A stretch of DNA of 17,068 nucleotides, taken from contig PWGE01000305.1 in NCBI GenBank assembly GCA_003554345.1, positions 1 to 17,068 of the forward strand. The letters are read 5' to 3'. How positions within the stretch are numbered: the first letter of the stretch is position 1; every line of letters starts with the position of its first letter. A program made the translations under genes and the position numbers. Origin of the DNA: T1SED10-198M sp003554345 [NCBI: Candidatus Sumerlaeota bacterium]. GTDB taxonomy: Bacteria; Sumerlaeota; T1SED10-198M. This document shows positions 868 to 9,514 of the stretch, piece by piece. The notes beneath the pieces were generated by a model. That model did no database searches, was not told where the DNA came from, and saw only the letters and a program-made list of their open reading frames with translations.

Positions 868-2055
868 TTATTCGTCGAAGAGCGACCAGTCTTCTATAAA
901 GAGAGGATCATCGTCTGGTGCGTGAAATTGAACAATTCCGCCGGGAATTGCCATGTAAGCCCGCTGCTCATCAGGAGCAAAAGCAAAACCACCTGCATCT
1001 GAATTATGAGTGGGCCACGGTATTTTTACATAAAGCCCGGGAAATGGATTATCTTCATCATCGGCTTCCCAGTATTCACCTTCGTCAAGAGCTGTCCAGC
1101 CGCTTTCTGTTGCGTTGCCGGTGCCGATGGGGTCACCATCATGGATGTTGCTAAACGCAACCCGCGAATAATAGTAGCCGTAATCTTCGTTATCCTTTAC
1201 ATCTCCTTTTGTGCCGCCACGGGCGATAATACCGGCATCATAATCGCCTCCGATAAAATTTTCAAAACCAAATCCTGCCAGAGCTTCTGTTGCATCATCG
1301 TCGAATTCGTAACCGTCTTCGATAGAACCGCTGTAAGCCTGGATGCCTTCATCATACCCATAGAGCATACTTCCATCCTGGGCTAAAACGATGCCGTTAT
1401 CACCGTTTTCACCGATTTCAAGTACATCATAATCGGTGATTTCTTCAAAATCGTTGACATCATCCGGACTGTTCTGGCTCAGACGCACATAATTTCCCCG
1501 ACCTGATGCGAAAACACACTCACCGTCATTGTAATTGCCAATGACATCAAAATTACGGGTGGCACCCCACAACTGATCACCATCATTGTCTAAATATACC
1601 GGTCCATGTAAATGCCTTCCATCTGCTTCATCGTCATCTTCGGTTCCAACGAGAAAAACACAACCAACACTATTCATGCCCATAATCACACCATCTTCAG
1701 TAACTCCTACCCGGTCCAGAGAATAACCGGCATCGCCCCAGTCATAGGCTCCGGATATGGTGTGTTGTACGGATAAGTCTCCGGAATCAAGGATGAGTAT
1801 TTTGCCCCCCTCGTTGTCAGGGGCTTCATCGAATTCATGCAGCACCACGCCGACCACCAGGTTACCCGTATCAGGGTTGTAATCGGCATCGACAATGGTA
1901 GCATCTTCTCCCAGTCCCAGGTCTTCATAGTAGCTGATTTCACCAAAGATAAAAGCATTATCATATCCTTCCGGGGGCTCGTAAACTGTTTCGCCGTCCC
2001 CCATCATACAGAAAGCAAAAGCGAATAGAAAAAAGATTAAACATACCTTTTTCAT
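868..2055 (-). CDS. Secreted acidic protein of unknown function, beta-propeller-like
   Basis: The protein has 395 residues and starts at 2055 behind a very strong ribosome site (AAGGAGGAG, about 6 nt before ATG). Residues 1-20 are a signal peptide with a hydrophobic core and a Cys at 16; cleavage is likely near Met-Gly/Asp-20, so I expect a periplasmic or extracellular protein. The mature chain is very acidic and made of repeated short strands and Asp/Gly-rich turns, for example DADYNPDTGNLVVGV (56-70), TEDGVIMGMNSVG (119-131), LAQDGSMLYGYDEG (224-237) and FAFAPDEQRAYMAIPGG (357-373). This pattern suits a propeller of the NHL/WD type, but that is inference. It ends in EDWSLFDE, close to the end of the 13249-15774 protein. 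It is a tandem paralogue of the partial gene at 1-484. It has its own promoter and terminator, so it is probably monocistronic. Function is not known. Confidence 0.9.
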   Translation of the reverse strand: MKKVCLIFFLFAFAFCMMGDGETVYEPPEGYDNAFIFGEISYYEDLGLGEDATIVDADYNPDTGNLVVGVVLHEFDEAPDNEGGKILILDSGDLSVQHTISGAYDWGDAGYSLDRVGVTEDGVIMGMNSVGCVFLVGTEDDDEADGRHLHGPVYLDNDGDQLWGATRNFDVIGNYNDGECVFASGRGNYVRLSQNSPDDVNDFEEITDYDVLEIGENGDNGIVLAQDGSMLYGYDEGIQAYSGSIEDGYEFDDDATEALAGFGFENFIGGDYDAGIIARGGTKGDVKDNEDYGYYYSRVAFSNIHDGDPIGTGNATESGWTALDEGEYWEADDEDNPFPGLYVKIPWPTHNSDAGGFAFAPDEQRAYMAIPGGIVQFHAPDDDPLFIEDWSLFDE

Positions 2056-2124: not shown

Positions 2125-2868
2125 CTTAAACAAAATAAAAATATAGATTAAATGCATTTTTCTTATTATTAAATATTTAAAACTTTTTGAAAGTGTTATA
2201 ACATTCAAAAAGAAAAGGGGGATGCTTTTTATGGAAGTTGCGATTAACCGCCATTAAATGAAGTGTATTTATTCAAAGTATTATTGTTTGTTTGATGGTT
2301 GAAACCTATTTCTTATGAAAGACATTCCTGCATAAAGAGCGATATATCCTGATCTCAACATTTTTCTATCCAGTCAATATTTTCGTAACCTTATGTAGCG
2401 GTACCCGGAGTGTCATTAAATGCCGCTTTTTGATATTTATATTCTTTTTGGTTCTTTCGTAAATATTGTGGAGATGCCGCTATAACTGATATGCAAAGAG
2501 AAAAGAAGATCAGAATCAGAATCTATGCGTCAACCGTATGAAAATCTTATCCAATTTTTTTGTCATGTATTCTTTTCGAGTATTTCGTGGTTAAAAAAAG
2601 AATAATGAACCATGAAATAAAGATAATATTTTGTTTTCCGGGGTGCCTTCTCTGGAAGTTCTCTTTTTCGGTATCTTCTCTTTTGAATCTTCTTTCTTAT
2701 TTCCGGTTGTATTTTCAGGAGAAATATAATAGAGAACCTGGCCAAAAGAACAAATGTGTGCTCACTCAATCCCGGAAAAATTCCACAAAATATGCGAAAG
2801 ACCCTTCTTCGTACAGTGTTATATTAATTGACCCAAAATGTTCATTTAAGAGAAAAATCTTGCTCAAT
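2125..2868. other. AT-rich intergenic spacer between divergent transcription units
   Basis: Apart from the palindrome at 2183-2212 I see no gene or clear signal. Reading frames at 2560-2883 (plus) and 2563-2769 (minus) lie opposite each other, lack ribosome sites, and read as low-complexity Lys/Phe/Leu-rich sequence typical of chance frames. The stretch separates the minus-strand secreted-protein gene from the plus-strand trp promoters. Confidence 0.6.
2183..2212. repeat. 30-nt AT-rich palindrome upstream of the secreted-protein promoter
   Basis: CTTTTTGAA (2183-2191) and TTCAAAAAG (2204-2212) flank the perfect palindrome TGTTATAACA (2194-2203), leaving only two unpaired bases (AG, 2192-2193). 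It lies about 60 bp upstream of the -35 box of the minus-strand promoter at 2096-2124. It could be a regulator binding site or a weak AT-rich hairpin. No regulator gene is nearby. Confidence 0.5.
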
Positions 2869-2898
2869 TTGACACAATACTAAAAAAAAGAATATAAA
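2869..2898 (+). promoter_or_regulatory. trp promoter P1 (upstream)
   Basis: A perfect TTGACA (2869-2874) is followed after 18 bp by TATAAA (2893-2898). Predicted transcription start is near 2905. A transcript from here would carry the ribosome site GGAG (2910-2913), correctly spaced (8 nt) for the ATG at 2922. I see no convincing TrpR-type operator over it. Confidence 0.7.
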
Positions 2899-2901
2899 AA
2901 C

Positions 2902-2930
2902 TTGACAACGGAGAAAAAAAGATGTATATT
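2902..2930 (+). promoter_or_regulatory. trp promoter P2 (downstream, overlapping the leader gene)
   Basis: A perfect TTGACA (2902-2907) and TATATT (2925-2930) are 17 bp apart. Predicted start of transcription is near 2937, only a few bases before the second in-frame ATG (2940), so RNA from here would translate the leader peptide almost without a 5' untranslated region. P1 and P2 are offset by about 32 bp, and the P1 start falls in the P2 -35 box. Sequence alone cannot tell which one is used. Confidence 0.65.
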
Positions 2931-3008
2931 TTAAATACGATGAAAAAAGAAACAAGACATTACATTTTTAAACAGGCCCATAAAAACTGGTGGTGGTGGA
3001 CAATGTAA
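2922..3008 (+). CDS. trpL: trp operon leader peptide with four consecutive Trp codons
   Basis: The 28-residue frame runs from ATG 2922 to TAA 3006-3008. ATG 2922 is chosen because GGAG (2910-2913) sits 8 nt upstream. A second in-frame ATG at 2940 would give a 22-residue form, suited to RNA from P2. Codons 2988-2999 are TGG TGG TGG TGG, followed by Thr-Met-stop. Four tandem Trp codons just before a hairpin series and trpE are the hallmark of ribosome-mediated transcription attenuation: scarce charged tRNA-Trp stalls the ribosome there. The peptide itself is not expected to have another function. Confidence 0.9.
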   Translation: MYILNTMKKETRHYIFKQAHKNWWWWTM

Positions 3009-3050
3009 GGTTGTCCGCCCCCTTGTTTAAAAAGCCGCGGGTGGGCAACC
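2995..3050 (+). promoter_or_regulatory. trp attenuator segments 1-3: pause hairpin (1:2) and alternative antiterminator (2:3)
   Basis: Segment 1 (GGTGGACAA, 2995-3003, over the last Trp codons) pairs with segment 2 (TTGTCCGCC, 3011-3019), 9 bp with one G-U pair. Segment 2 (GGTTGTCCGCCC, 3009-3020) can instead pair with segment 3 (GGGTGGGCAACC, 3039-3050), 12 bp with two G-U pairs. The second pairing destroys the terminator at 3029-3064. A ribosome that reaches the leader stop codon (3006) would cover segment 2 and favour termination. One stalled on the Trp codons would free segment 2 and favour read-through. These pairings were made by eye, not folded. Confidence 0.85.
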
Positions 3051-3064
3051 ACCCGCGGCTTTTT
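3029..3064 (+). terminator. trp attenuator terminator T1 (segments 3:4)
   Basis: A perfect 16-bp stem (3029-3044 with 3049-3064), containing GCCGCGGGTGG and its complement, is closed by a GCAA tetraloop of the stable GNRA type. The stem's 3' arm ends in five T residues followed by ATTT. It lies 20 bp after the leader stop codon and competes with antiterminator 2:3. Confidence 0.95.
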
Positions 3065-3091
3065 ATTTGCCCAGAAATAAAAAGCCGTGGG
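3052..3091 (+). promoter_or_regulatory. Possible second antiterminator (segments 4:5) joining the two trp terminators
   Basis: The 3' arm of T1 plus its tail (CCCGCGGCTTTTTATTT, 3052-3068) can pair with the 5' arm of T2 and the bases before it (AAATAAAAAGCCGTGGG, 3075-3091). This is 17 bp with a single G-U pair and a 6-nt loop (3069-3074). The pairing is compatible with 2:3 (which ends at 3050) and incompatible with both T1 and T2. It is not followed by a T run, so it would not itself terminate. The pairing is seen directly in the sequence; that it acts in regulation is inference. Confidence 0.6.
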
Positions 3092-3111
3092 AACAAACCC
3101 CACGGCTTTTT
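3079..3111 (+). terminator. trp leader second terminator T2 (segments 5:6)
   Basis: The stem AAAAAGCCGTGGG (3079-3091) pairs perfectly with 3099-3111 across a 7-nt loop (3092-3098) and is followed by more T (seven T in all, 3107-3113). The left arm resembles that of T1 (GCCGCGGG versus GCCGTGGG), so it may have arisen by duplication. It ends 29 bp before trpE. It could be a fail-safe or a coupled second attenuator. Confidence 0.92.
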
Positions 3112-3140
3112 TTATGGCATAAAACAGAGGAGAAAAACAA

Positions 3141-4658
3141 ATGTTTCATCCAAGCTTCAGTACGGTTCAAAAATTGAGCTCTCGGTATAATCGTATTCCC
3201 GTGTATAAGGAGATGAATCTATCGGAATTACATCTTCTTTCACTCCTGAAAGCCTTACAATCGAAAGAAGAGGTTATTTTCCTTGAAAGTGCCCGGGAAA
3301 ATAAAAAATGGAGCCGTTTTTCTTTCTTTGGTTTCCATCCCCGCAAAAAAATCCGTTTTTCTCCGCCAGTGGTGGTGGTAGAAGAAAACGGCGAAGAAAA
3401 AGAAATTCGGGAAGATATTTATACCTATTTAAATAAAGAGCTGGAAAAATATCATTCTCCGTCTTATCGTAGCTTTGGACCCTTTAATGGCGGCTTTGTG
3501 GGTTACTTTGGATATGAGACGGTCAACTATGCGGGTATTTTGCGTCAAAAGATAAGGGAAAGAAAAGAGCTTCCCCTGGCGTATTTACTTCATATAGACA
3601 GTTTTATTGTCCATGATAATTATAAGAACCGCTATTACCTGGCAGAATGTTTCTATCCGGATAAAAGTATACCCCTTAAGAGGCAGTATGAGAAATGCCG
3701 TCAGGTGCTTCTGAAACGAGAAGAAGAGTTAATTGCCGAACTGGAAAAAACTTCTCTTCCTTACCTGCCTGCACATCCAGGCGAAAAAGTGGATGTTGCC
3801 TTTCGGGAAGATAAGGATTCTTTTACGGGAAAGGTGGCAGAGGTTCAGGAACTTATTCGCTCAGGAGAAGCCATCCAGGTGGTATTGAGTTTGAGGGCTG
3901 ATATTAAAGAAGAGATCGACCCCTATAATTTTTATCTGCGTCTTCGTACGGTAAATCCATCTCCTTACATGTTTTTCCTTAAGTTTGGCTCTCTCTATGT
4001 GGTGGGCAGTTCACTGGAAATTCACGTGAGGGTGGAGAAACGGCAGGTATATCTCAAACCTATTGCGGGGACTATTCCCCAGGGAAGTACACGGCAGGAA
4101 AGTCGACGAAACAAGCAGATTCTTCTGGAAGATAAAAAGGAAAGGGCGGAACATCTCATGTTAGTGGATCTGGGTCGTAATGACCTGGGTCGTGTTGCCA
4201 GAAGGGGAACGGTAGAGGTGACAAAATTCATGAAACCGGAGGATTACTCCCACGTTATTCATCTTGTTTCTCTGGTGAAATGTACGTTGGACGACAGATT
4301 TACTGAAATGGATGTTCTTAAAGAAACCTTTCCGGCAGGTACCGTGAGCGGCGCTCCCAAAGTGCGCGCTATCGAACTCATTGAAGAATATGAGCCCCAT
4401 CCCCGCGATATATATTCCGGTGCAGTCGGTTATTGCGGTTTTAACGGAAATCTTGATACCTGTATTACCATACGTAGTGCTGTTTTTAATGAGAAAGAAC
4501 GTTATCTGCAGGCAGGAGCAGGCATTGTGTATGATAGTGTACCCGAAAAAGAGTATCAGGAGATAACGCATAAACTCAAAGCCCTGGCGGAAAGCTTGAA
4601 TTTCGCCCGTCCCCGTAAAAATAAAAAGGAGGATAGCAGTCATGTTTTTAATGATTGA
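3141..4658 (+). CDS. trpE: Anthranilate synthase component I
   Basis: This is the chorismate-binding subunit: with ammonia supplied by TrpG it makes anthranilate and pyruvate, the first committed step of tryptophan synthesis. The 505 residues are normal length. ATG 3141 follows GAGGAG by 8 nt. Near the N-terminus FLESA (47-51) corresponds to the LLES element where tryptophan binds for feedback inhibition. The catalytic half shows NPSPYMFFL (272-280), VVGSSLE (287-293), KPIAGTIPQGSTRQE (306-320), ERAEHLMLVDLGRNDLGRV (334-352), TFPAGTVSGAPKVRAIELIE (396-415) and QAGAGIVYDSVPEKEYQE (457-474). It is the first structural gene after the attenuator. Its last 17 nt overlap trpG, so translational coupling is likely. 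Confidence 0.98.
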   Translation: MFHPSFSTVQKLSSRYNRIPVYKEMNLSELHLLSLLKALQSKEEVIFLESARENKKWSRFSFFGFHPRKKIRFSPPVVVVEENGEEKEIREDIYTYLNKELEKYHSPSYRSFGPFNGGFVGYFGYETVNYAGILRQKIRERKELPLAYLLHIDSFIVHDNYKNRYYLAECFYPDKSIPLKRQYEKCRQVLLKREEELIAELEKTSLPYLPAHPGEKVDVAFREDKDSFTGKVAEVQELIRSGEAIQVVLSLRADIKEEIDPYNFYLRLRTVNPSPYMFFLKFGSLYVVGSSLEIHVRVEKRQVYLKPIAGTIPQGSTRQESRRNKQILLEDKKERAEHLMLVDLGRNDLGRVARRGTVEVTKFMKPEDYSHVIHLVSLVKCTLDDRFTEMDVLKETFPAGTVSGAPKVRAIELIEEYEPHPRDIYSGAVGYCGFNGNLDTCITIRSAVFNEKERYLQAGAGIVYDSVPEKEYQEITHKLKALAESLNFARPRKNKKEDSSHVFND

Positions 4659-5238
4659 TAACTATGATTCGTTTACCTATAACCTGGTTCAGGATTTTTT
4701 CTCTCTGGGAGAGGAAATAGAGGTTTTTCCCAATGATACTCCCATGGAAAAACTCCATCTTTCGAAGTATAAGGGAGTGATTTTATCTCCTGGTCCTTCG
4801 GAACCATCGAGCTCGGGATTAACCCTGGAAATCATGAAACGGTGTGCTTCTTGCAAACCGATTCTCGGTGTGTGTCTTGGCATGCAATCTATAGCTTATG
4901 CCTTTGGAGGAGAGGTGTTTCAGGCAGAAAGGATAATGCATGGCAAAGTGGATACCGTCCATCATCTGGGTGGAGACTTGTTTCACCAGGTGCCCCGTCG
5001 GTTTCCCGCCGTTCGCTATCATTCATTAGTGGTTGGTGCTGAAGCCCTTCCCGATTGTTTTGAGGTTCGTGCCTATTCTTCGGATGGTGAAATTATGGCG
5101 ATTAAGCATCGCTCTCTTTATATCTGGGGAGTGCAGTTTCATCCTGAATCATATTTGACTGATGTCGGAAAACAGATTATAAAAAATTTCGTTGGAGGAG
5201 CATATGAGTATAACAAAAAGCATGCATGCTCTCTATGA
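4642..5238 (+). CDS. trpG: Anthranilate synthase component II, glutamine amidotransferase
   Basis: This class I glutamine amidotransferase hydrolyses glutamine and passes ammonia to TrpE. The 198 residues match a stand-alone subunit. Visible features are DNYDSFTYN (6-14), the oxyanion region LSPGPSEPSSSG (48-59), the nucleophile Cys78 in GVCLGMQ, MHGK (99-102) and the His167/Glu169 pair in FHPES. ATG 4642 lies inside the end of trpE, and its ribosome site AGGAGG (4627-4632) is also within trpE. It overlaps trpD by 35 nt. In several bacteria trpG and trpD are fused; here they are separate and in different frames. The same subunit could also serve para-aminobenzoate synthesis (as PabA), but the operon makes TrpG the main role. 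Confidence 0.97.
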   Translation: MFLMIDNYDSFTYNLVQDFFSLGEEIEVFPNDTPMEKLHLSKYKGVILSPGPSEPSSSGLTLEIMKRCASCKPILGVCLGMQSIAYAFGGEVFQAERIMHGKVDTVHHLGGDLFHQVPRRFPAVRYHSLVVGAEALPDCFEVRAYSSDGEIMAIKHRSLYIWGVQFHPESYLTDVGKQIIKNFVGGAYEYNKKHACSL

Positions 5239-6208
5239 AGGGCAAAGTTTACATGCCCCGGAGGCAGAAGAATTGTTTGATACTATTTTTCAGGGAGAAG
5301 TAGAGCCCATTCAACTGGCTTCTGTTTTGGTCGCCATGAAGGTTCGTAAGGAAAAACCCCATGAAATTGTGGGAGCTGTGCGCTCTATGCGTAAATTTGC
5401 CGCTCCCTTTTCAGTGCAGAAAAATGTTTTTGATACCTGTGGAACGGGTGGTGATAATTCTCATAGCTTTAATATTTCTACCGCTACTGCACTTATACTC
5501 AGCGCTATGGGTATTCCTATTGCCAAGCACGGTAACAGGTCGGTGAGCAGTAAGAGCGGGTCGGCTGACTTTCTGGAAGCTCTTGGTGTTCCGATCCATC
5601 TCAAAGGAGAAAAAGCTGAAAGGTATTTTAAGGAGCATGATTTTGTGTTCCTTTTTGCCCCTCATTATCATCCGGCCATGAAATATGCTGTTCCAGCTCG
5701 TAAGGCATTGGGAGTGCGCACGATTTTTAATTATCTTGGTCCATTGACCAATCCTACTCGTCCCAGGCGCCAGATGATAGGAGTGTTTCATACCAGTTTT
5801 TTACCTCTTTATTCTGAAGTTGCCCGTTTCCTGGACTATGAACGCTTACTTCTCTATTCCAGTCAGGATGGGTTGGATGAAATTTCTCCCTTTAGTCCTA
5901 CCAGGATGGTGGAAATAAGCGGTTCAGAGGAGAAAAAATGGTTGCTCTCGCCCACTGATTATTTTGATAAAAAAGAACTTGATGATATTCCTCGTGATAT
6001 GACGCCCTCAGAAAATGCAGAGTTGTTTATGAGGATGCTCCATTCCTCATCTCCAGGCTCCCTGGCTAAGGTCCTGGCTGTTAATGCCGCTACCGGTATT
6101 TATATAAGTAAAGGCGGCAAGATGCAAAAACATTACCGGGATGCGCTGGAGTGCATCTGCAGTGGCGAAGTGCTCAAAAAAGTAAAATCATTGCAGGGGG
6201 ATAGTTGA
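5204..6208 (+). CDS. trpD: Anthranilate phosphoribosyltransferase
   Basis: TrpD transfers the phosphoribosyl group of PRPP to anthranilate (second pathway step). ATG 5204 is preferred over the in-frame TTG 5192 because GGAGGAG (5194-5200) lies just upstream and the family N-terminus begins about here. This gives 334 residues, the usual length. Motifs are DTCGTGGDNSHSFN (77-90, PRPP-binding glycine loop), STATA, KHGNRSVSSKSGSADFLEALG (108-128 region, anthranilate and Mg-PRPP binding), APHYHPAMKYAVPARK and GVRTIFNYLGPLTNP, and GLDEIS. It starts within trpG. Its stop overlaps the trpC start as TGATG, so ribosomes can re-initiate directly. Confidence 0.97.
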   Translation: MSITKSMHALYEGQSLHAPEAEELFDTIFQGEVEPIQLASVLVAMKVRKEKPHEIVGAVRSMRKFAAPFSVQKNVFDTCGTGGDNSHSFNISTATALILSAMGIPIAKHGNRSVSSKSGSADFLEALGVPIHLKGEKAERYFKEHDFVFLFAPHYHPAMKYAVPARKALGVRTIFNYLGPLTNPTRPRRQMIGVFHTSFLPLYSEVARFLDYERLLLYSSQDGLDEISPFSPTRMVEISGSEEKKWLLSPTDYFDKKELDDIPRDMTPSENAELFMRMLHSSSPGSLAKVLAVNAATGIYISKGGKMQKHYRDALECICSGEVLKKVKSLQGDS

Positions 6209-6975
6209 TGCCTTTTTCTCTGAGAAGCATGAGAGAACTGAAAATTCGTGAACAGGAAAACGTGAAGTCCCTGCTGGCTGCAGAAAAAAGACGTTTGCGT
6301 CCGGTGATTACCTCTCCCTTTGCAAATCTTCCCGAAGGCACAAAGATTATTGCAGAAATTAAAAAGGGAAGTCCTACTGGAGGCTCCATGCAAAACGTGA
6401 ATCCCCGGCGTCAGGCAGAGGTATATGTTAAAGCGGGAGCCGCCGGCGTAAGTGTGCTGTGTGATGGCAACTATTTCCAGGGCAGCTGGGAAGATCTCAG
6501 GAAGGCTTCTGAAAATATCAGGGTGCCGGTGTTGTGTAAAGAGTTTATCCTCTTTCCTGAACAGGTTGATCTTGCCTACCGATACGGTGCTGATATGGTT
6601 TTGCTTATTAATCGTTTTCTCTCGAAAGAGGAATTGAAGGATTTATACCGGTATATTCTTCAATGCAATCTTATGCCGTTGATAGAAATACATTCTCCTT
6701 CTGAGCTTCCTGCTGTTTTGTCTTTTGATCCCTCTTACATCATGGTGAATATACGGAATTTAGAGACCCTGGAAATAGATAAGAAAACAGCTATGAAGAC
6801 ATTGCAGAATATTCCGAAGGGGATAACCACAATTAGTGCCAGCGGGATTCAATGTCCTGCTGATATCAGGGAAATCAAAGAAGAAACAGGAACAGAAATC
6901 TTTCTGATAGGCACAGCCCTCATGAAAAGAGAACGTCCCGGGGATTGTTTGAAGGAGTTTCTGCATGTTCGTTAA
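6208..6975 (+). CDS. trpC: Indole-3-glycerol phosphate synthase
   Basis: TrpC closes the indole ring: CdRP is decarboxylated and dehydrated to indole-3-glycerol phosphate in a TIM barrel. ATG 6208 overlaps the trpD stop by one base (a TTG at 6205 is also possible); the product has 255 residues. Catalytic and substrate elements are AEIKKGSPTGG (49-59, Glu50 and Lys52), PVLCKEF (107-113, Lys111 as the general acid), PLIEIHS (157-163, Glu160), Asn181 in VNIRNLETLEI, and phosphate-binding IGTALMK (234-240). One oddity: the usual Glu-Ser-Gly-Ile motif reads Ala-Ser-Gly-Ile (Ala211). The barrel is otherwise intact, so I expect an active enzyme. It is separate from TrpF, unlike the fused enzyme of E. 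coli. Confidence 0.96.
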   Translation: MPFSLRSMRELKIREQENVKSLLAAEKRRLRPVITSPFANLPEGTKIIAEIKKGSPTGGSMQNVNPRRQAEVYVKAGAAGVSVLCDGNYFQGSWEDLRKASENIRVPVLCKEFILFPEQVDLAYRYGADMVLLINRFLSKEELKDLYRYILQCNLMPLIEIHSPSELPAVLSFDPSYIMVNIRNLETLEIDKKTAMKTLQNIPKGITTISASGIQCPADIREIKEETGTEIFLIGTALMKRERPGDCLKEFLHVR

Positions 6976-7582
6976 GTATTGTGGATTTACCCGCATTGAA
7001 GATGTGCAGTTTGCTGCCGGTTTGCCGCTCTCGGCTGCAGGCTTTATCTTTCACCGACCCTCAAAACGCTGTATATCTCCGGAAAAAGCAGCCGAATTGG
7101 GTTCTGTTTTGAAAAAGAGGGGGATTAAAACAGTGGGAGTATTTGTAAGGCAAACGGCTCAGGAAATACGTGAAATGAGTGAGAAGGCAGAACTTGATAT
7201 GTTACAGCTATACGATCATTGTGTGGCTCAGCAATTGACCTCTTTTCTGCCAATATTATATGCTTACCGTGTGAGGGAAGAATCTTCACCTGACGAAATT
7301 ATTGTCCCTCCGGCTCCTCATTTTCTCCTTCTTGATGCCTTTCACCCGGCAGAATATGGCGGGACCGGGGAGAGGTTTGACTGGAAATTTCTCGAACATT
7401 TTGCCTCTCTGGAACGAACAATCATTGCCGGGGGAATAAATCACTCCAATGTGAAAGATTTACTCTCGTACTGTTATCCGTATGGTATAGACGTTTCGTC
7501 AGGTATTGAGAAAGAACCGGGAGTAAAGGATCACCAAAAAATGGGAGCACTTATCAATAACATCCAAAATGAACACGGTTAA
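6965..7582 (+). CDS. trpF: Phosphoribosylanthranilate isomerase
   Basis: TrpF converts phosphoribosylanthranilate to CdRP by an Amadori rearrangement, on a small TIM barrel. The 205 residues are typical of stand-alone TrpF. The catalytic Cys6 lies in KYCGFTR and the catalytic Asp124 in LLLDAF. Also present are GFIFHRPSKRCISPEKA (26-42), EYGGTGERFDW (130-140), IIAGGINHSNV (153-163) and the phosphate-binding GIDVSSGIEKEPGVKDHQK (174-192). ATG 6965 follows AAGGAG by 6 nt, and the gene overlaps the end of trpC by 11 nt. The order C then F matches the reverse of nothing in the chemistry (F acts before C) but is the common operon order. Confidence 0.97.
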   Translation: MFVKYCGFTRIEDVQFAAGLPLSAAGFIFHRPSKRCISPEKAAELGSVLKKRGIKTVGVFVRQTAQEIREMSEKAELDMLQLYDHCVAQQLTSFLPILYAYRVREESSPDEIIVPPAPHFLLLDAFHPAEYGGTGERFDWKFLEHFASLERTIIAGGINHSNVKDLLSYCYPYGIDVSSGIEKEPGVKDHQKMGALINNIQNEHG

Positions 7583-7604: not shown

Positions 7605-8780
7605 ATGAGAAGACCATCAAGGAAAGGTTATTTTGGGAATTATGGGGGACGTTTTGTGGCAGAAACTCTTATCAATGCCCTGGATGAATTGAATCAGGCT
7701 TATGAATCTTTTCGTGAAAATCAGGACTACCAGCAAAAACTCAAAACTCTACTCTCACATTATGCCGGACGACCCACCCCCATTTATTTTGCCCGGCGTT
7801 TGTCGAAAAAAATATCCGTCAACCTTTATTTAAAAAGGGAAGATTTATTACATACCGGCGCCCACAAGTTGAACAATACTCTGGGTCAGATTCTTTTAAC
7901 TCAGTATATGGGGAAAAAAAGGGTTATTGCAGAAACCGGTGCAGGACAGCATGGTGTGGCTACAGCAACAGTAGCCGCCCTCTTAGGTTTGGAGTGTGAT
8001 ATTTATATGGGCGAAGTGGATATAGAGCGACAGGCTCCCAATGTTAAACGAATGGAACTTCTGGGAGCACGGGTAATTCCTGTGAAAACCGGTAGCCGAA
8101 CCCTTAAAGATGCTGTGAATGAAGCTCTGAAGGATTGGGTGCGAAATGTTCAGTCCACCCATTATCTTATTGGTTCCGTTGTAGGACCTCATCCTTTTCC
8201 CTGGATGGTCAGGGATTTTCAATCTGTTATAGGCAAAGAGTCTCGTCGCCAGTTTCGAAAGATGACAGGAGCTCTTCCTGACTATGCCGTAGCTTGTGTG
8301 GGCGGCGGGAGTAATGCCCTTGGTTTGTTCTCAGGATTCATGAATGATCCTTCTGTAAAATGTATTGGGGTGGAAGCCGGAGGAAGAGCCCTTACTCCCG
8401 GTGACCATGCTGCTACTGTTACCCTCGGAAAAAAAGGGGTGCTGCATGGCAGTCTGAGTCTGTTACTTCAGGATGAAGAAGGTCAGGTCTCTCCGGTTCA
8501 TTCGGTTTCAGCAGGACTGGATTATCCGGGTGTGGGACCCGAGCACAGCCATCTTCATGAAACAAAAAAGGCGGAGTATTATCACTGTTCTGATGAAAGT
8601 GCTCTGCAAGCCTGTCAGACTTTAGCCCGATGGGAAGGGATAATTCCTGCCCTGGAAAGCAGTCATGCGCTGGGATATATTCTTGACCATCAGTCACGTT
8701 ATAAAGATAAGGATGTGCTTATCAATCTTTCCGGTAGAGGAGATAAAGATCTGGCAATTATTATTCGGGAGGTTTTATGA
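7605..8780 (+). CDS. trpB: Tryptophan synthase beta chain
   Basis: The PLP-dependent beta subunit condenses indole, channelled from TrpA, with serine to give tryptophan. The 391 residues are usual for the classic TrpB1 type. Motifs are [12 protein letters not shown] (11-22), [20 protein letters not shown] (76-95) with the PLP-binding Lys88, [17 protein letters not shown] (109-125) with catalytic Glu110, the PLP-phosphate glycine loop [10 protein letters not shown] (231-240), [14 protein letters not shown] (304-317) and LSGRGDKD (375-382). It follows trpF after a 22-nt gap with its own ribosome site AAGGAG, the only true gap in the structural operon. Its stop overlaps the trpA start (ATGA), consistent with equal synthesis of the two subunits of the complex. 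Confidence 0.98.
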
Positions 8781-9514
8781 TGACTGCATATAATGGATTT
8801 TATCTTGTGGGAAATTACCCTGACTTTGAATTATTTACAGAAGCGTTGCGTGAAGGTTTGCGGTATTTTGATTTTGCAGAAATTGGTATACCTTTTTCCG
8901 ACCCGGTAGCCGATGGACCCGTGATAGCTACCGCTGCTGATGCAGTGCTCAAAGCTGGTTTTAAGTGGGAAAAACTTTTAGAGTCGGTGCAAAAGGTGCG
9001 GCAGTCAGCAGATTCTCATAAAAAGCTTTACTGGATGAGCTATGCGAATATACTCTATCATCACGGCCTGCAAAACTTTATTGAACGCAGTAAAGAGGTG
9101 GGAATAGATGGGATTATTGTTCCTGATATCCCTTTTGTCGAAAGTGAAGAGCTCAAGAAGTTATGTCATCAGCACCGGATGGATTATATTCATTTTGCCA
9201 CCCCGGAAAATACTGATGAACAGATAAAGAGAATTGCCTCAGCAGCGCAGGGTTTTTTATATTTCGTATCGATACGTGGAGTAACCGGTAGCCGCCTCCT
9301 GGTAGATGATGAAACTGCCCGCAAAATTCAGCTGGCAAAAGAATATTCGCCGGTACCTGTCATCCTGGGATTTGGTATTAGAGATAAAAAGACGGTTGAA
9401 CGGGCACTTCAACTGGCAGATGGCTTCATTGCAGGCACAGCGCTGGTGAAAGCGTTAGGCACGGGTGAAATGGACAACTTTACCAGTCTCTGTAAACAAT
9501 TAACGGGCAACTAA
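8777..9514 (+). CDS. trpA: Tryptophan synthase alpha chain
   Basis: The alpha subunit cleaves indole-3-glycerol phosphate to indole and glyceraldehyde 3-phosphate, and indole passes through the tunnel to TrpB. Two adjacent ATG codons (8777, 8780) are possible starts; the longer form has 245 residues. Catalytic Glu35 lies in [10 protein letters not shown] and Asp46 in [15 protein letters not shown] (113-120), [11 protein letters not shown] (163-173, loop 6 region), ILGFGI (196-201) and phosphate-binding [11 protein letters not shown] (217-227) complete the barrel. The N-terminus is about 14 residues shorter than the E. coli protein, so the N-terminal capping helix is missing, as in Thermotoga-like short TrpA. 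It is the last gene of the operon, followed by a hairpin at 9523-9570. Confidence 0.97.

What the first reader, a model, noticed from the sequence alone, without database searches (positions are those of the whole stretch)
2922..3111. Six-segment trp attenuator: two terminators that may switch together
The leader RNA can form two complete, mutually exclusive sets of pairings. Off state: 1:2 (2995-3003/3011-3019), 3:4 = T1 (3029-3044/3049-3064), 5:6 = T2 (3079-3091/3099-3111). On state: 2:3 (3009-3020/3039-3050, 12 bp) and 4:5 (3052-3068/3075-3091, 17 bp with one G-U). The on-state pairs do not overlap each other and block both terminators. A ribosome stalled on the four Trp codons would thus release segment 4 from T1, and segment 4 would then disarm T2, passing one signal down a chain. 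The classic trp attenuator has four segments and one terminator. Caution: because T1 and T2 have similar arms, some 4:5 pairing is automatic; the added ATTT/AAAT pairs beyond the shared stem argue for more than chance.
Basis: partly seen in the sequence, partly recalled or inferred. Interest (0 to 1): 0.78.

Follow-up and report, generated by a model that had tools for sequence, protein, structure and literature searches.

The report
Two-terminator relay tryptophan attenuator
The RNA leader of this bacterium's tryptophan genes carries two stop signals wired in series so that one stalled ribosome can probably switch off both, and the same wiring turns up, with different sequences, in several other bacterial groups, which suggests a little-noticed version of a textbook gene switch.

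Summary
The leader precedes a complete trpEGDCFBA operon. The off state is the energy minimum. If 2:3 forms first and is kept, 4:5 follows and T2 never becomes the best fold.

The main new evidence is comparative. Trp leaders with two tandem terminator hairpins recur in three other phylum groups (23, 15 and 10 loci) and two single genomes. A 4:5 helix of at least 8 bp exists in 50 of 51 leaders, window included. It covaries in two of three alignments (not 69) and beats the duplication control 3:6 in 34 of 43 scored.

Limits: no experiment. At equilibrium a freed arm 4 beats T2 in the window and L315 but not in 40 of 42 scored leaders, so elsewhere the relay must mostly be kinetic. The six-segment chain itself is known from the his attenuator; new here is that 3:4 and 5:6 are both terminators. 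Ten open-access searches found no description. Verdict: a new variant of a known kind, apparently widespread.

The parts
2869..2898 (+). candidate promoter P1: TTGACA (2869-2874), 18-nt spacer, TATAAA (2893-2898); would start RNA near 2905, upstream of the leader ORF
   Evidence: read from the sequence; not listed by the consensus scan, whose rule asks for T at the last -10 position
2902..2930 (+). alternative promoter P2: TTGACA-17-TATATT (11 of 12); would start RNA near 2937 and use the internal Met codon at 2940
   Evidence: 1 found in 2500-3300, 2.1 expected in shuffles
2910..2913 (+). Shine-Dalgarno-like GGAG, 8 nt before the leader start codon
   Evidence: sequence
2922..3008 (+). leader peptide ORF MYILNTMKKETRHYIFKQAHKNWWWWTM, stop TAA 3006-3008
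2988..2999 (+). four consecutive Trp codons (stall site)
2995..3019 (+). 1:2 hairpin (2995-3003/3011-3019)
   Evidence: -12.2 kcal/mol
3009..3050 (+). 2:3 antiterminator (3009-3020/3039-3050)
   Evidence: -20.3; saddle to T1 20.8 kcal/mol
3029..3064 (+). T1 = 3:4 intrinsic terminator hairpin (3029-3044/3049-3064; 3028-3065 also pair), U tract 3060-3068 (TTTTTATTT)
3052..3091 (+). 4:5 relay helix (3052-3068/3075-3091), 17 bp, loop of 6
   Evidence: -25.6
3079..3111 (+). T2 = 5:6 intrinsic terminator hairpin (3079-3091/3099-3111), U tract 3107-3113
3126..3132 (+). ribosome-binding site of trpE (AGAGGAG), outside every helix
   Evidence: sequence
3141..4658 (+). trpE
   Evidence: best NCBIfam family TIGR00564, E 6.4e-140, 467.2 bits, below its cut-off of 517.7
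4642..5238 (+). trpG
   Evidence: TIGR00566 above cut-off
5192..6208 (+). trpD
   Evidence: TIGR01245 above cut-off
6205..6975 (+). trpC
   Evidence: best NCBIfam hits are TrpC, below their cut-offs
6965..7582 (+). trpF
   Evidence: best NCBIfam hits are TrpF, below their cut-offs
7605..8780 (+). trpB
   Evidence: TIGR00263 above cut-off
8777..9514 (+). trpA
   Evidence: TIGR00262 above cut-off

Best explanation
This is a ribosome-mediated trp transcription attenuator of six RNA segments with two intrinsic terminators in series. [quoted passage not shown] 3:4 forms T1, and any polymerase that escapes T1 meets T2 (5:6), because segment 4 is held in T1. With Trp short, the ribosome stalls on the four Trp codons, 2:3 forms before segment 4 is made, T1 cannot form, segment 4 is left free and pairs with segment 5 before segment 6 is made, and T2 is blocked as well. 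One event thus sets both terminators, while the off state gets two barriers against leak. Shown by computation: the pairings, their order of stability along the growing RNA, and the recurrence of T1, T2 and 4:5 in relatives (2:3 in most of them). Inferred: actual termination, stalling, and lower leak in cells that lack a Trp repressor.
For: Geometry: Trp codons, stop codon and segments lie as in classical attenuators. MFE walk: 2:3 at 3044, [2:3+4:5] from 3084 to 3117 if 2:3 is kept; ribosome at stop gives T1 from 3056 and T2 from 3105. Barriers: 2:3 to T1 20.8, [2:3+4:5] to [T1+T2] 23.7 kcal/mol; with 2:3 in place, 4:5 to T2 is uphill by 5.5. Logic: T2 lies between the leader and trpE; the scan shows no promoter-like site between the leader ORF and trpE, so unless T2 can be disarmed the operon is never fully on. 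Relatives: two-terminator Trp leaders in 23 of 29 readable trpE loci of one phylum, 15 of 15 of a second, 10 of 28 readable of a third, plus L149 and L315; 4:5 of 8 bp or more in 50 of these 51, window included. Covariation of 4:5: 6 of 10 pairs change on both sides, score 0.344 against 0.247 shuffled, 0 of 500; 5 of 10; 0.210 against 0.121, 0 of 500. Internal control 4:5 against 3:6: 34 of 43 scored, window -25.4 against -11.2. A Trp repressor above cut-off was found in 0 of the 51 genomes with such leaders.
Against: No experiment. At equilibrium a freed arm 4 displaces T2 in the window (P(T2) 0.96 to 0.04) and in L315, but pairing of arm 5 with arm 4 exceeds 0.5 in 0 of 20, 0 of 11 and 0 of 9 scored relatives of the three groups (highest 0.44 in L126); there the relay needs kinetics. 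L269, not scored, has a 4:5 of -31.2 against T2 of -25.1. The barrier 4:5 to T2 has a median of 9.7 kcal/mol over 41 leaders but falls to 2.4-2.9 in L267, L130, L240, L242; the his D:E to E:F yardstick is 14.8. In set C the 2:3 helix is weak (-5.1 to -11.3; none found in L300) and its barrier to T1 is only about 3 kcal/mol in L295 and L291. Covariation is not significant in set C. L262 keeps two hairpins with only a 5-bp 4:5. No genome closer than the same phylum is held, and none of 32 other own-phylum trpE upstreams has a Trp leader with a terminator by script, so the window's own 3065-3068/3075-3078 pairs cannot be tested for compensation.
Confidence: 0.72

Rival explanations
1. T2 is a duplicated or recombined copy of T1 that serves only as a back-up terminator; 4:5 complementarity follows from the likeness of the two hairpins and has no role.
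For: T1 and T2 share AAAAAGCCGYGGG; in set A the cores change together; in L234, L236, L237, L238, L262, L264, L293 and L299 (and in the mis-placed L265) 4:5 is no stronger than 3:6.
Against: Duplication predicts 4:5 = 3:6, but 4:5 is stronger in 34 of 43 scored. In the window the single core difference keeps 4:5 (as G-U) and breaks 3:6. In L136, L270 and L271 the 4:5 helix uses CAAG of the T2 loop (AAG in L273), bases that neither terminator stem needs, and one of its pairs is U-A in L136 and L270, C-G in L271 and L272, U-G in L273. In L244 and L254 arms 4 and 5 pair as A-U where most of set A has G-C, while arm 6 has the G that fits the common form, leaving a G-U in T2; in L253 arm 6 matches. 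A T2 that cannot be disarmed would keep the operon largely off.
Confidence: 0.14
2. T2 is the only working terminator and 3:4 acts as the C:D hairpin of the his attenuator, a spacer that carries the signal without terminating.
For: Six-segment logic as in his. In L241, L243 and L252 the U tract after 3:4 is degenerate (CTTTTAAG, CTTCTTAG, CTTTAAAT).
Against: In the window 3:4 is the stronger hairpin and is followed by TTTTTATTT; a script that asks for U tracts of 4 or more found two terminators in 43 of 50 leaders. E. coli C:D has no U tract and only -11.6 kcal/mol.
Confidence: 0.08
3. 4:5 matters after the decision: it is a stable hairpin at the 5' side of the read-through mRNA (protection or processing), and T2 is partly read through in both states.
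For: In 40 of 42 scored leaders T2 is not displaced by 4:5 at equilibrium, so full disarming is not assured.
Against: Attenuators in general rely on the less stable helix forming first; the his D:E helix is far weaker than E:F (-8.4 against -32.2). In the window 4:5 wins even at equilibrium.
Confidence: 0.06

Closest known systems
his operon attenuator of E. coli and Salmonella
   Same: six segments; AB/CD/EF in the off state, BC/DE in the on state (PMC10989985, passages); single leader peptide and single signal; an extra hairpin that a model links to low basal read-through (PMC1183508, passages)
   Different: only E:F is a terminator; in E. coli K-12 C:D is -11.6 kcal/mol with no U tract and D:E is an 8-bp helix; here 3:4 and 5:6 both have U tracts and 4:5 is 17 bp
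classical trp attenuator (E. coli trpL; Corynebacterium and Streptomyces trp, PMC1262725, passages)
   Same: Trp codons in a short leader ORF, 1:2, 2:3 antiterminator, 3:4 terminator with U tract, upstream of trpE
   Different: four segments and one terminator; E. coli also has a Trp repressor (control), not found here; no Rfam RF00513 match in the window or the own genome
tandem attenuators of Salmonella mgtCBR (PMC3641672, abstract and outline)
   Same: two attenuation steps in one leader
   Different: two ORFs and two independent signals there; one ORF and one signal here
rimP leader with a second, tandem terminator in some Gammaproteobacteria (PMC2965389, passages)
   Same: two terminators in tandem, with a possible antiterminator
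   Different: no leader peptide or ribosome sensing described in the passages seen

Membership tests
classical ribosome-mediated trp attenuator | short ORF with consecutive Trp codons before the trp operon | tested here: met
   four TGG at 2988-2999, ORF 2922-3008; trpEGDCFBA downstream
classical ribosome-mediated trp attenuator | alternative 1:2, 2:3 and 3:4 pairings, 3:4 having the form of an intrinsic terminator | tested here: met
classical ribosome-mediated trp attenuator | four segments, one terminator | tested here: not met
   two terminator hairpins, six segments
classical ribosome-mediated trp attenuator | Trp-dependent termination in cells or in vitro | not testable with these tools
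   needs bench work
his-type six-segment attenuator | 1:2, 3:4, 5:6 against 2:3, 4:5 | tested here: met
   his pattern from PMC10989985 and E. coli sequence
his-type six-segment attenuator | only the last hairpin is a terminator | tested here: not met
   T1 has a 16-17 bp stem and TTTTTATTT; in E. coli his C:D has no U tract
Rfam Trp_leader (RF00513) or other described leader family | covariance-model match above gathering score | tested here: not met
   none in the window; RF00513 without match in the own genome; no leader family in the 5 relatives scanned (L127, L237, L270, L296, L304)
T-box leader | RF00230 match | tested here: not met
   no match in the window, although leuA of the same genome has one (L071, 133.1 bits)
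tandem attenuators for two signals (mgtCBR type) | two leader ORFs | tested here: not met
   one Trp leader ORF; no start codon with an ORF between T1 and T2 (sequence by eye)

The most novel reading that the evidence does not exclude
Two-terminator relay attenuators are a widespread and old class of trp switch in bacteria without TrpR. On the TrpE tree the trait needs three changes and sits in at least two separate clades (window + sets A, B and L149; set C), so it arose more than once or was lost and moved. In it the second terminator is slaved to the fold of the first: it re-checks polymerases that escape T1 while the T1 hairpin stands, but lets pass those for which the ribosome has opened T1. 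This cuts basal leak without costing induction.
Probability: 0.5. Interest if true: 0.8.

Novelty: new variant of a known kind. Interest (0 to 1): 0.72.

Why it matters
The trp attenuator is the textbook case of RNA-based control, described with four segments and one terminator. A form with two coupled terminators, found here in several deep bacterial groups, would show that the textbook version is one of several designs. It links the trp and his types and gives a natural test of how a cell lowers leak when attenuation is the only control. Three leaders with a degenerate first U tract (L241, L243, L252) look like intermediates between the two-terminator form and the his form. The helix that passes the signal (4:5) can be tested cleanly because, in the window, a few extra base pairs decide the balance.

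Tried and rejected
Close relatives of the window: none held; relatives are same phylum at best, and 32 other own-phylum trpE upstreams (21 loci, 11 regions) gave no Trp leader with a terminator by script, so the comparison used TrpE homologues from other groups. A genome-wide repeated terminator motif: rejected, only 3 sites of the T1/T2 core pattern. Known Rfam families: no match at gathering score; in a permissive scan of 351 bases the lowest E-value was RF01730, Termite-leu (29.3 bits, gathering 51), which I took as chance likeness of hairpin pairs without testing it. Leader attenuators at other amino-acid genes of the same genome: no HisG hit, leuA has a T-box, the PDT upstream was printed but showed nothing I could call. 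RF00513 over 242 genomes gave only sub-threshold hits in 5. Thermodynamic proof of the relay in relatives: tried and mostly negative. L176 (G069), a candidate with two alike terminators and a 12-bp 4:5 but no 2:3 and a doubtful leader, was left out of all counts.

Scripts with errors or gaps: one search did not flip minus-strand loci (replaced); one search missed most terminators (replaced); one search stopped half-way; the null counted the same hairpin on both strands as two (removed). In one search, 7 of 50 leaders (L235, L240, L243, L252, L269, L286, L149) were not scored because the script found one terminator, and L265 was scored with a wrong second hairpin and counts against; a later helix listing shows 4:5 helices of 9, 12, 10, 10, 21, 11, 9 and 14 bp in these eight. 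L315 was found. In one search 42 of 51 leaders were scored, 41 of 51. That all 15 set B loci have two hairpins with U tracts was read by eye; the script found two in 14 of 15. The TrpE tree used 113 of 138 extracted proteins; the 33 'other' rows were picked by hand.

Full report
What is in the window. The leader lies before an intact trpE-G-D-C-F-B-A operon. A 28-codon ORF (2922-3008) carries four consecutive Trp codons (2988-2999) near its end. Two promoter candidates exist: TTGACA-18-TATAAA (2869-2898, read by eye), which would give an RNA with a Shine-Dalgarno GGAG 8 nt before the ORF, and TTGACA-17-TATATT (2902-2930), which would start inside the ORF and use Met codon 7. Both keep the Trp codons. 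The upstream gene (868-2055, minus strand) points away, so the terminators do not serve it.

Check of the pairings. All five helices are exact at the stated coordinates: 1:2 -12.2, 2:3 -20.3 (12 bp with two G-U), T1 -31.2 (or 17 bp, -32.5), 4:5 -25.6 (17 bp, one G-U), T2 -20.7 kcal/mol. The whole leader folds far better than shuffled copies (z -8.05), into the off state.

Order of events. With RNA exposed step by step and the ribosome held on the Trp codons, 2:3 is the best fold from 3044. If it is kept, 4:5 joins at 3084 and stays to 3117, and T2 never becomes the best fold. With the ribosome at the stop codon, T1 appears at 3056 and T2 at 3105. Without memory the stalled RNA would refold to T1 at 3058, back to 2:3 with 4:5 at 3086, and to T1 with T2 at 3106. 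Once 4 is free, 4:5 (-26.7) is preferred over T2 (-20.9), P 0.96 against 0.04. If bases 3066-3068 are kept unpaired the preference reverses (0.004 against 0.996). So the ATTT/AAAT pairs are what lets 4:5 win at equilibrium in this leader.

Chance and duplication. The T1/T2 core pattern occurs at 3 sites in the assembly, two being T1 and T2. In a 407 kb sample (60 contigs and the window) 27 other terminators were found and no other tandem pair within 150 nt. Between unrelated terminators a run of 17 or more occurs in 1 of 694 ordered pairs, and 8 of 8 core pairing in 2 of 412. The 4-bp in-register extension is not rare (39 of 694). The real question is duplication: two alike hairpins give 4:5 for free.

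Relatives. TrpE was searched in 61, then 386 genomes. A scan of 153 upstream regions showed Trp leaders with two terminators in unrelated genomes. Searches of three phyla followed. The two-terminator Trp leader is present in 23 of 29 readable trpE loci of the first (set A; L251 lies at a contig end; L255 and L257-L261 lack it; one further hit had no locus), 15 of 15 of the second (set B, read by eye), 10 of 28 readable of the third (set C, 30 of 34 hits given as loci; L282 and L290 at contig ends), and in L149 and L315. With the window that is 51 leaders; a contiguous 4:5 helix of 8 bp or more is found in 50, the exception being L262 with 5. Single-terminator Trp leaders also occur (L128, L169, and several of set C such as L276-L278, L288, L297, L302, L303). 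Of 32 other members of the window's own phylum none has a Trp leader with a terminator by script.

Covariation of 4:5. Set A (23 rows, 22 distinct): 91.8% of cells pair, 6 of 10 pairs change on both sides in 16 cells, covariation 0.344 against 0.247 in shuffles (0 of 500 as high); slid controls 0.03-0.19. Set B (15 rows): 89.2%, 5 of 10 pairs, 0.210 against 0.121 (0 of 500), slid controls 0.01-0.08. Set C (10 rows): 93.3% paired but little variation, 1 of 12 pairs, 0.181 against 0.177 (122 of 500 as high), not significant. Relatedness inflates such counts, as the tool warns. The alignments were made without the structure, but the 4:5 columns were chosen from one row each, and some divergent rows (for example L239, L256, L293) are plainly misaligned there.

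Separating 4:5 from duplication. If T1 and T2 were alike only by descent, 3:6 should pair as well as 4:5. With a fixed loop, 4:5 is stronger in 34 of 43 leaders scored (window 1 of 1, A 15 of 19, B 11 of 14, C 7 of 9), means -15.4 and -11.1; in the window -25.4 against -11.2. The Wilcoxon p of 5e-5 ignores relatedness. Three details point the same way. In L136, L270 and L271 the 4:5 helix uses CAAG of the T2 loop (AAG in L273), and one pair is U-A in L270 and L136, C-G in L271 and L272, U-G in L273. In L244 and L254 arms 4 and 5 pair as A-U where most of set A has G-C, while arm 6 has the G of the common form, so T2 has a G-U there; L253 has a matching A. In the window the one core difference between T1 and T2 leaves a G-U in 4:5 and a C-A clash in 3:6.

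Against the relay. At equilibrium a freed arm 4 does not displace T2 in most scored relatives: median P(T2) 0.96 with arm 4 held and 0.95 with arm 4 free, 42 of 51 leaders scored; pairing of 5 with 4 exceeds 0.5 only in the window and L315 and is intermediate (0.40-0.44) in L126, L254 and L293. L269, unscored there, has a 21-bp 4:5 stronger than its T2 (-31.2 against -25.1). So elsewhere 4:5 must act by forming first. The computed barrier from 4:5 to T2 has a median of 9.7 kcal/mol (range 2.4-18.8, 41 leaders), lower than his D:E to E:F at 14.8; in L130, L240, L242 and L267 it is under 3. The 2:3 to T1 barrier has a median of 18.0 (38 leaders) but is about 3 in L291 and L295, and 2:3 is weak in set C. 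The his D:E helix is also much weaker than E:F (-8.4 against -32.2), so low stability alone does not exclude the role, but in some relatives T2 may be only partly disarmed.

History and purpose. On a FastTree of 113 TrpE proteins (of 138 extracted) the window lies in a clade of 41 (local support 100), of which 40 have two-terminator leaders and one (L128) a single terminator. Set C forms a separate clade, and the 21 own-phylum rows a third without such leaders. The trait needs three changes. The window's trp operon was therefore probably acquired from, or shared with, the set A/B side; since the assembly is a 454-contig draft with 4.32% contamination, a mis-assigned contig is also possible. 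A Trp repressor above cut-off was found in 0 of the 51 genomes with these leaders (one sub-threshold match, G149); the control rang in 2 of 14, E. coli and B. subtilis. A published model holds that the extra hairpin of the his leader lowers basal read-through where attenuation acts alone, and that E. coli trp, with 10-15% basal read-through, also has a repressor (PMC1183508, passages). Two terminators in series fit that need. This is inference.

Literature. Ten searches of the open-access library showed no two-terminator trp attenuator in their listings; subscription journals are mostly missing, so this is no proof of novelty. Seen: passages of PMC10989985, PMC2965389, PMC1183508 and PMC1262725, abstract and outline of PMC3641672; the rest as listings only.

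Verdict. Observation confirmed. Interpretation supported by computation and comparison, not by experiment. It works like a his-type six-segment chain built on a trp attenuator, and is a member of neither in the strict sense, because both inner hairpins are terminators.

Noticed in passing
L071 (G000:C374), 2388-2600 minus strand: The leuA-like gene of the same genome is preceded by a T-box leader (RF00230, 133.1 bits), so one assembly mixes T-box and leader-peptide control of amino-acid operons.
   Followed up: partly
window 3141-4658: TrpE groups with proteins of other phyla and not with those of the window's own phylum, which suggests horizontal transfer of the trp operon or a mis-assigned contig.
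   Followed up: partly
L276, L277, L278 upstream of trpE: Single-terminator leaders whose peptides mix Trp and Tyr codons (such as FWRNWYWYYY), perhaps sensing several aromatic amino acids.
   Followed up: no
L240, L242, L246, L250 between T2 and trpE: Long insertions, with inverted repeats in L240 and L242 (one search lists GUCCUGACUGC/GCAGUCAGGAC in L240), separate T2 from trpE in two genera, like small mobile repeats.
   Followed up: no
L241, L243, L252: The U tract after the first hairpin is degenerate, as if this lineage were turning the two-terminator form into a his-like form.
   Followed up: partly
L041 (Sebaldella), 395 nt upstream of the TrpE match, which begins at residue 118: A Trp-rich short ORF MKNNLWSWWFDILQLNIFITYTE followed by one AU-rich hairpin with a U tract; a possible trp attenuator in Fusobacteria, the trpE start not being mapped.
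   Followed up: no
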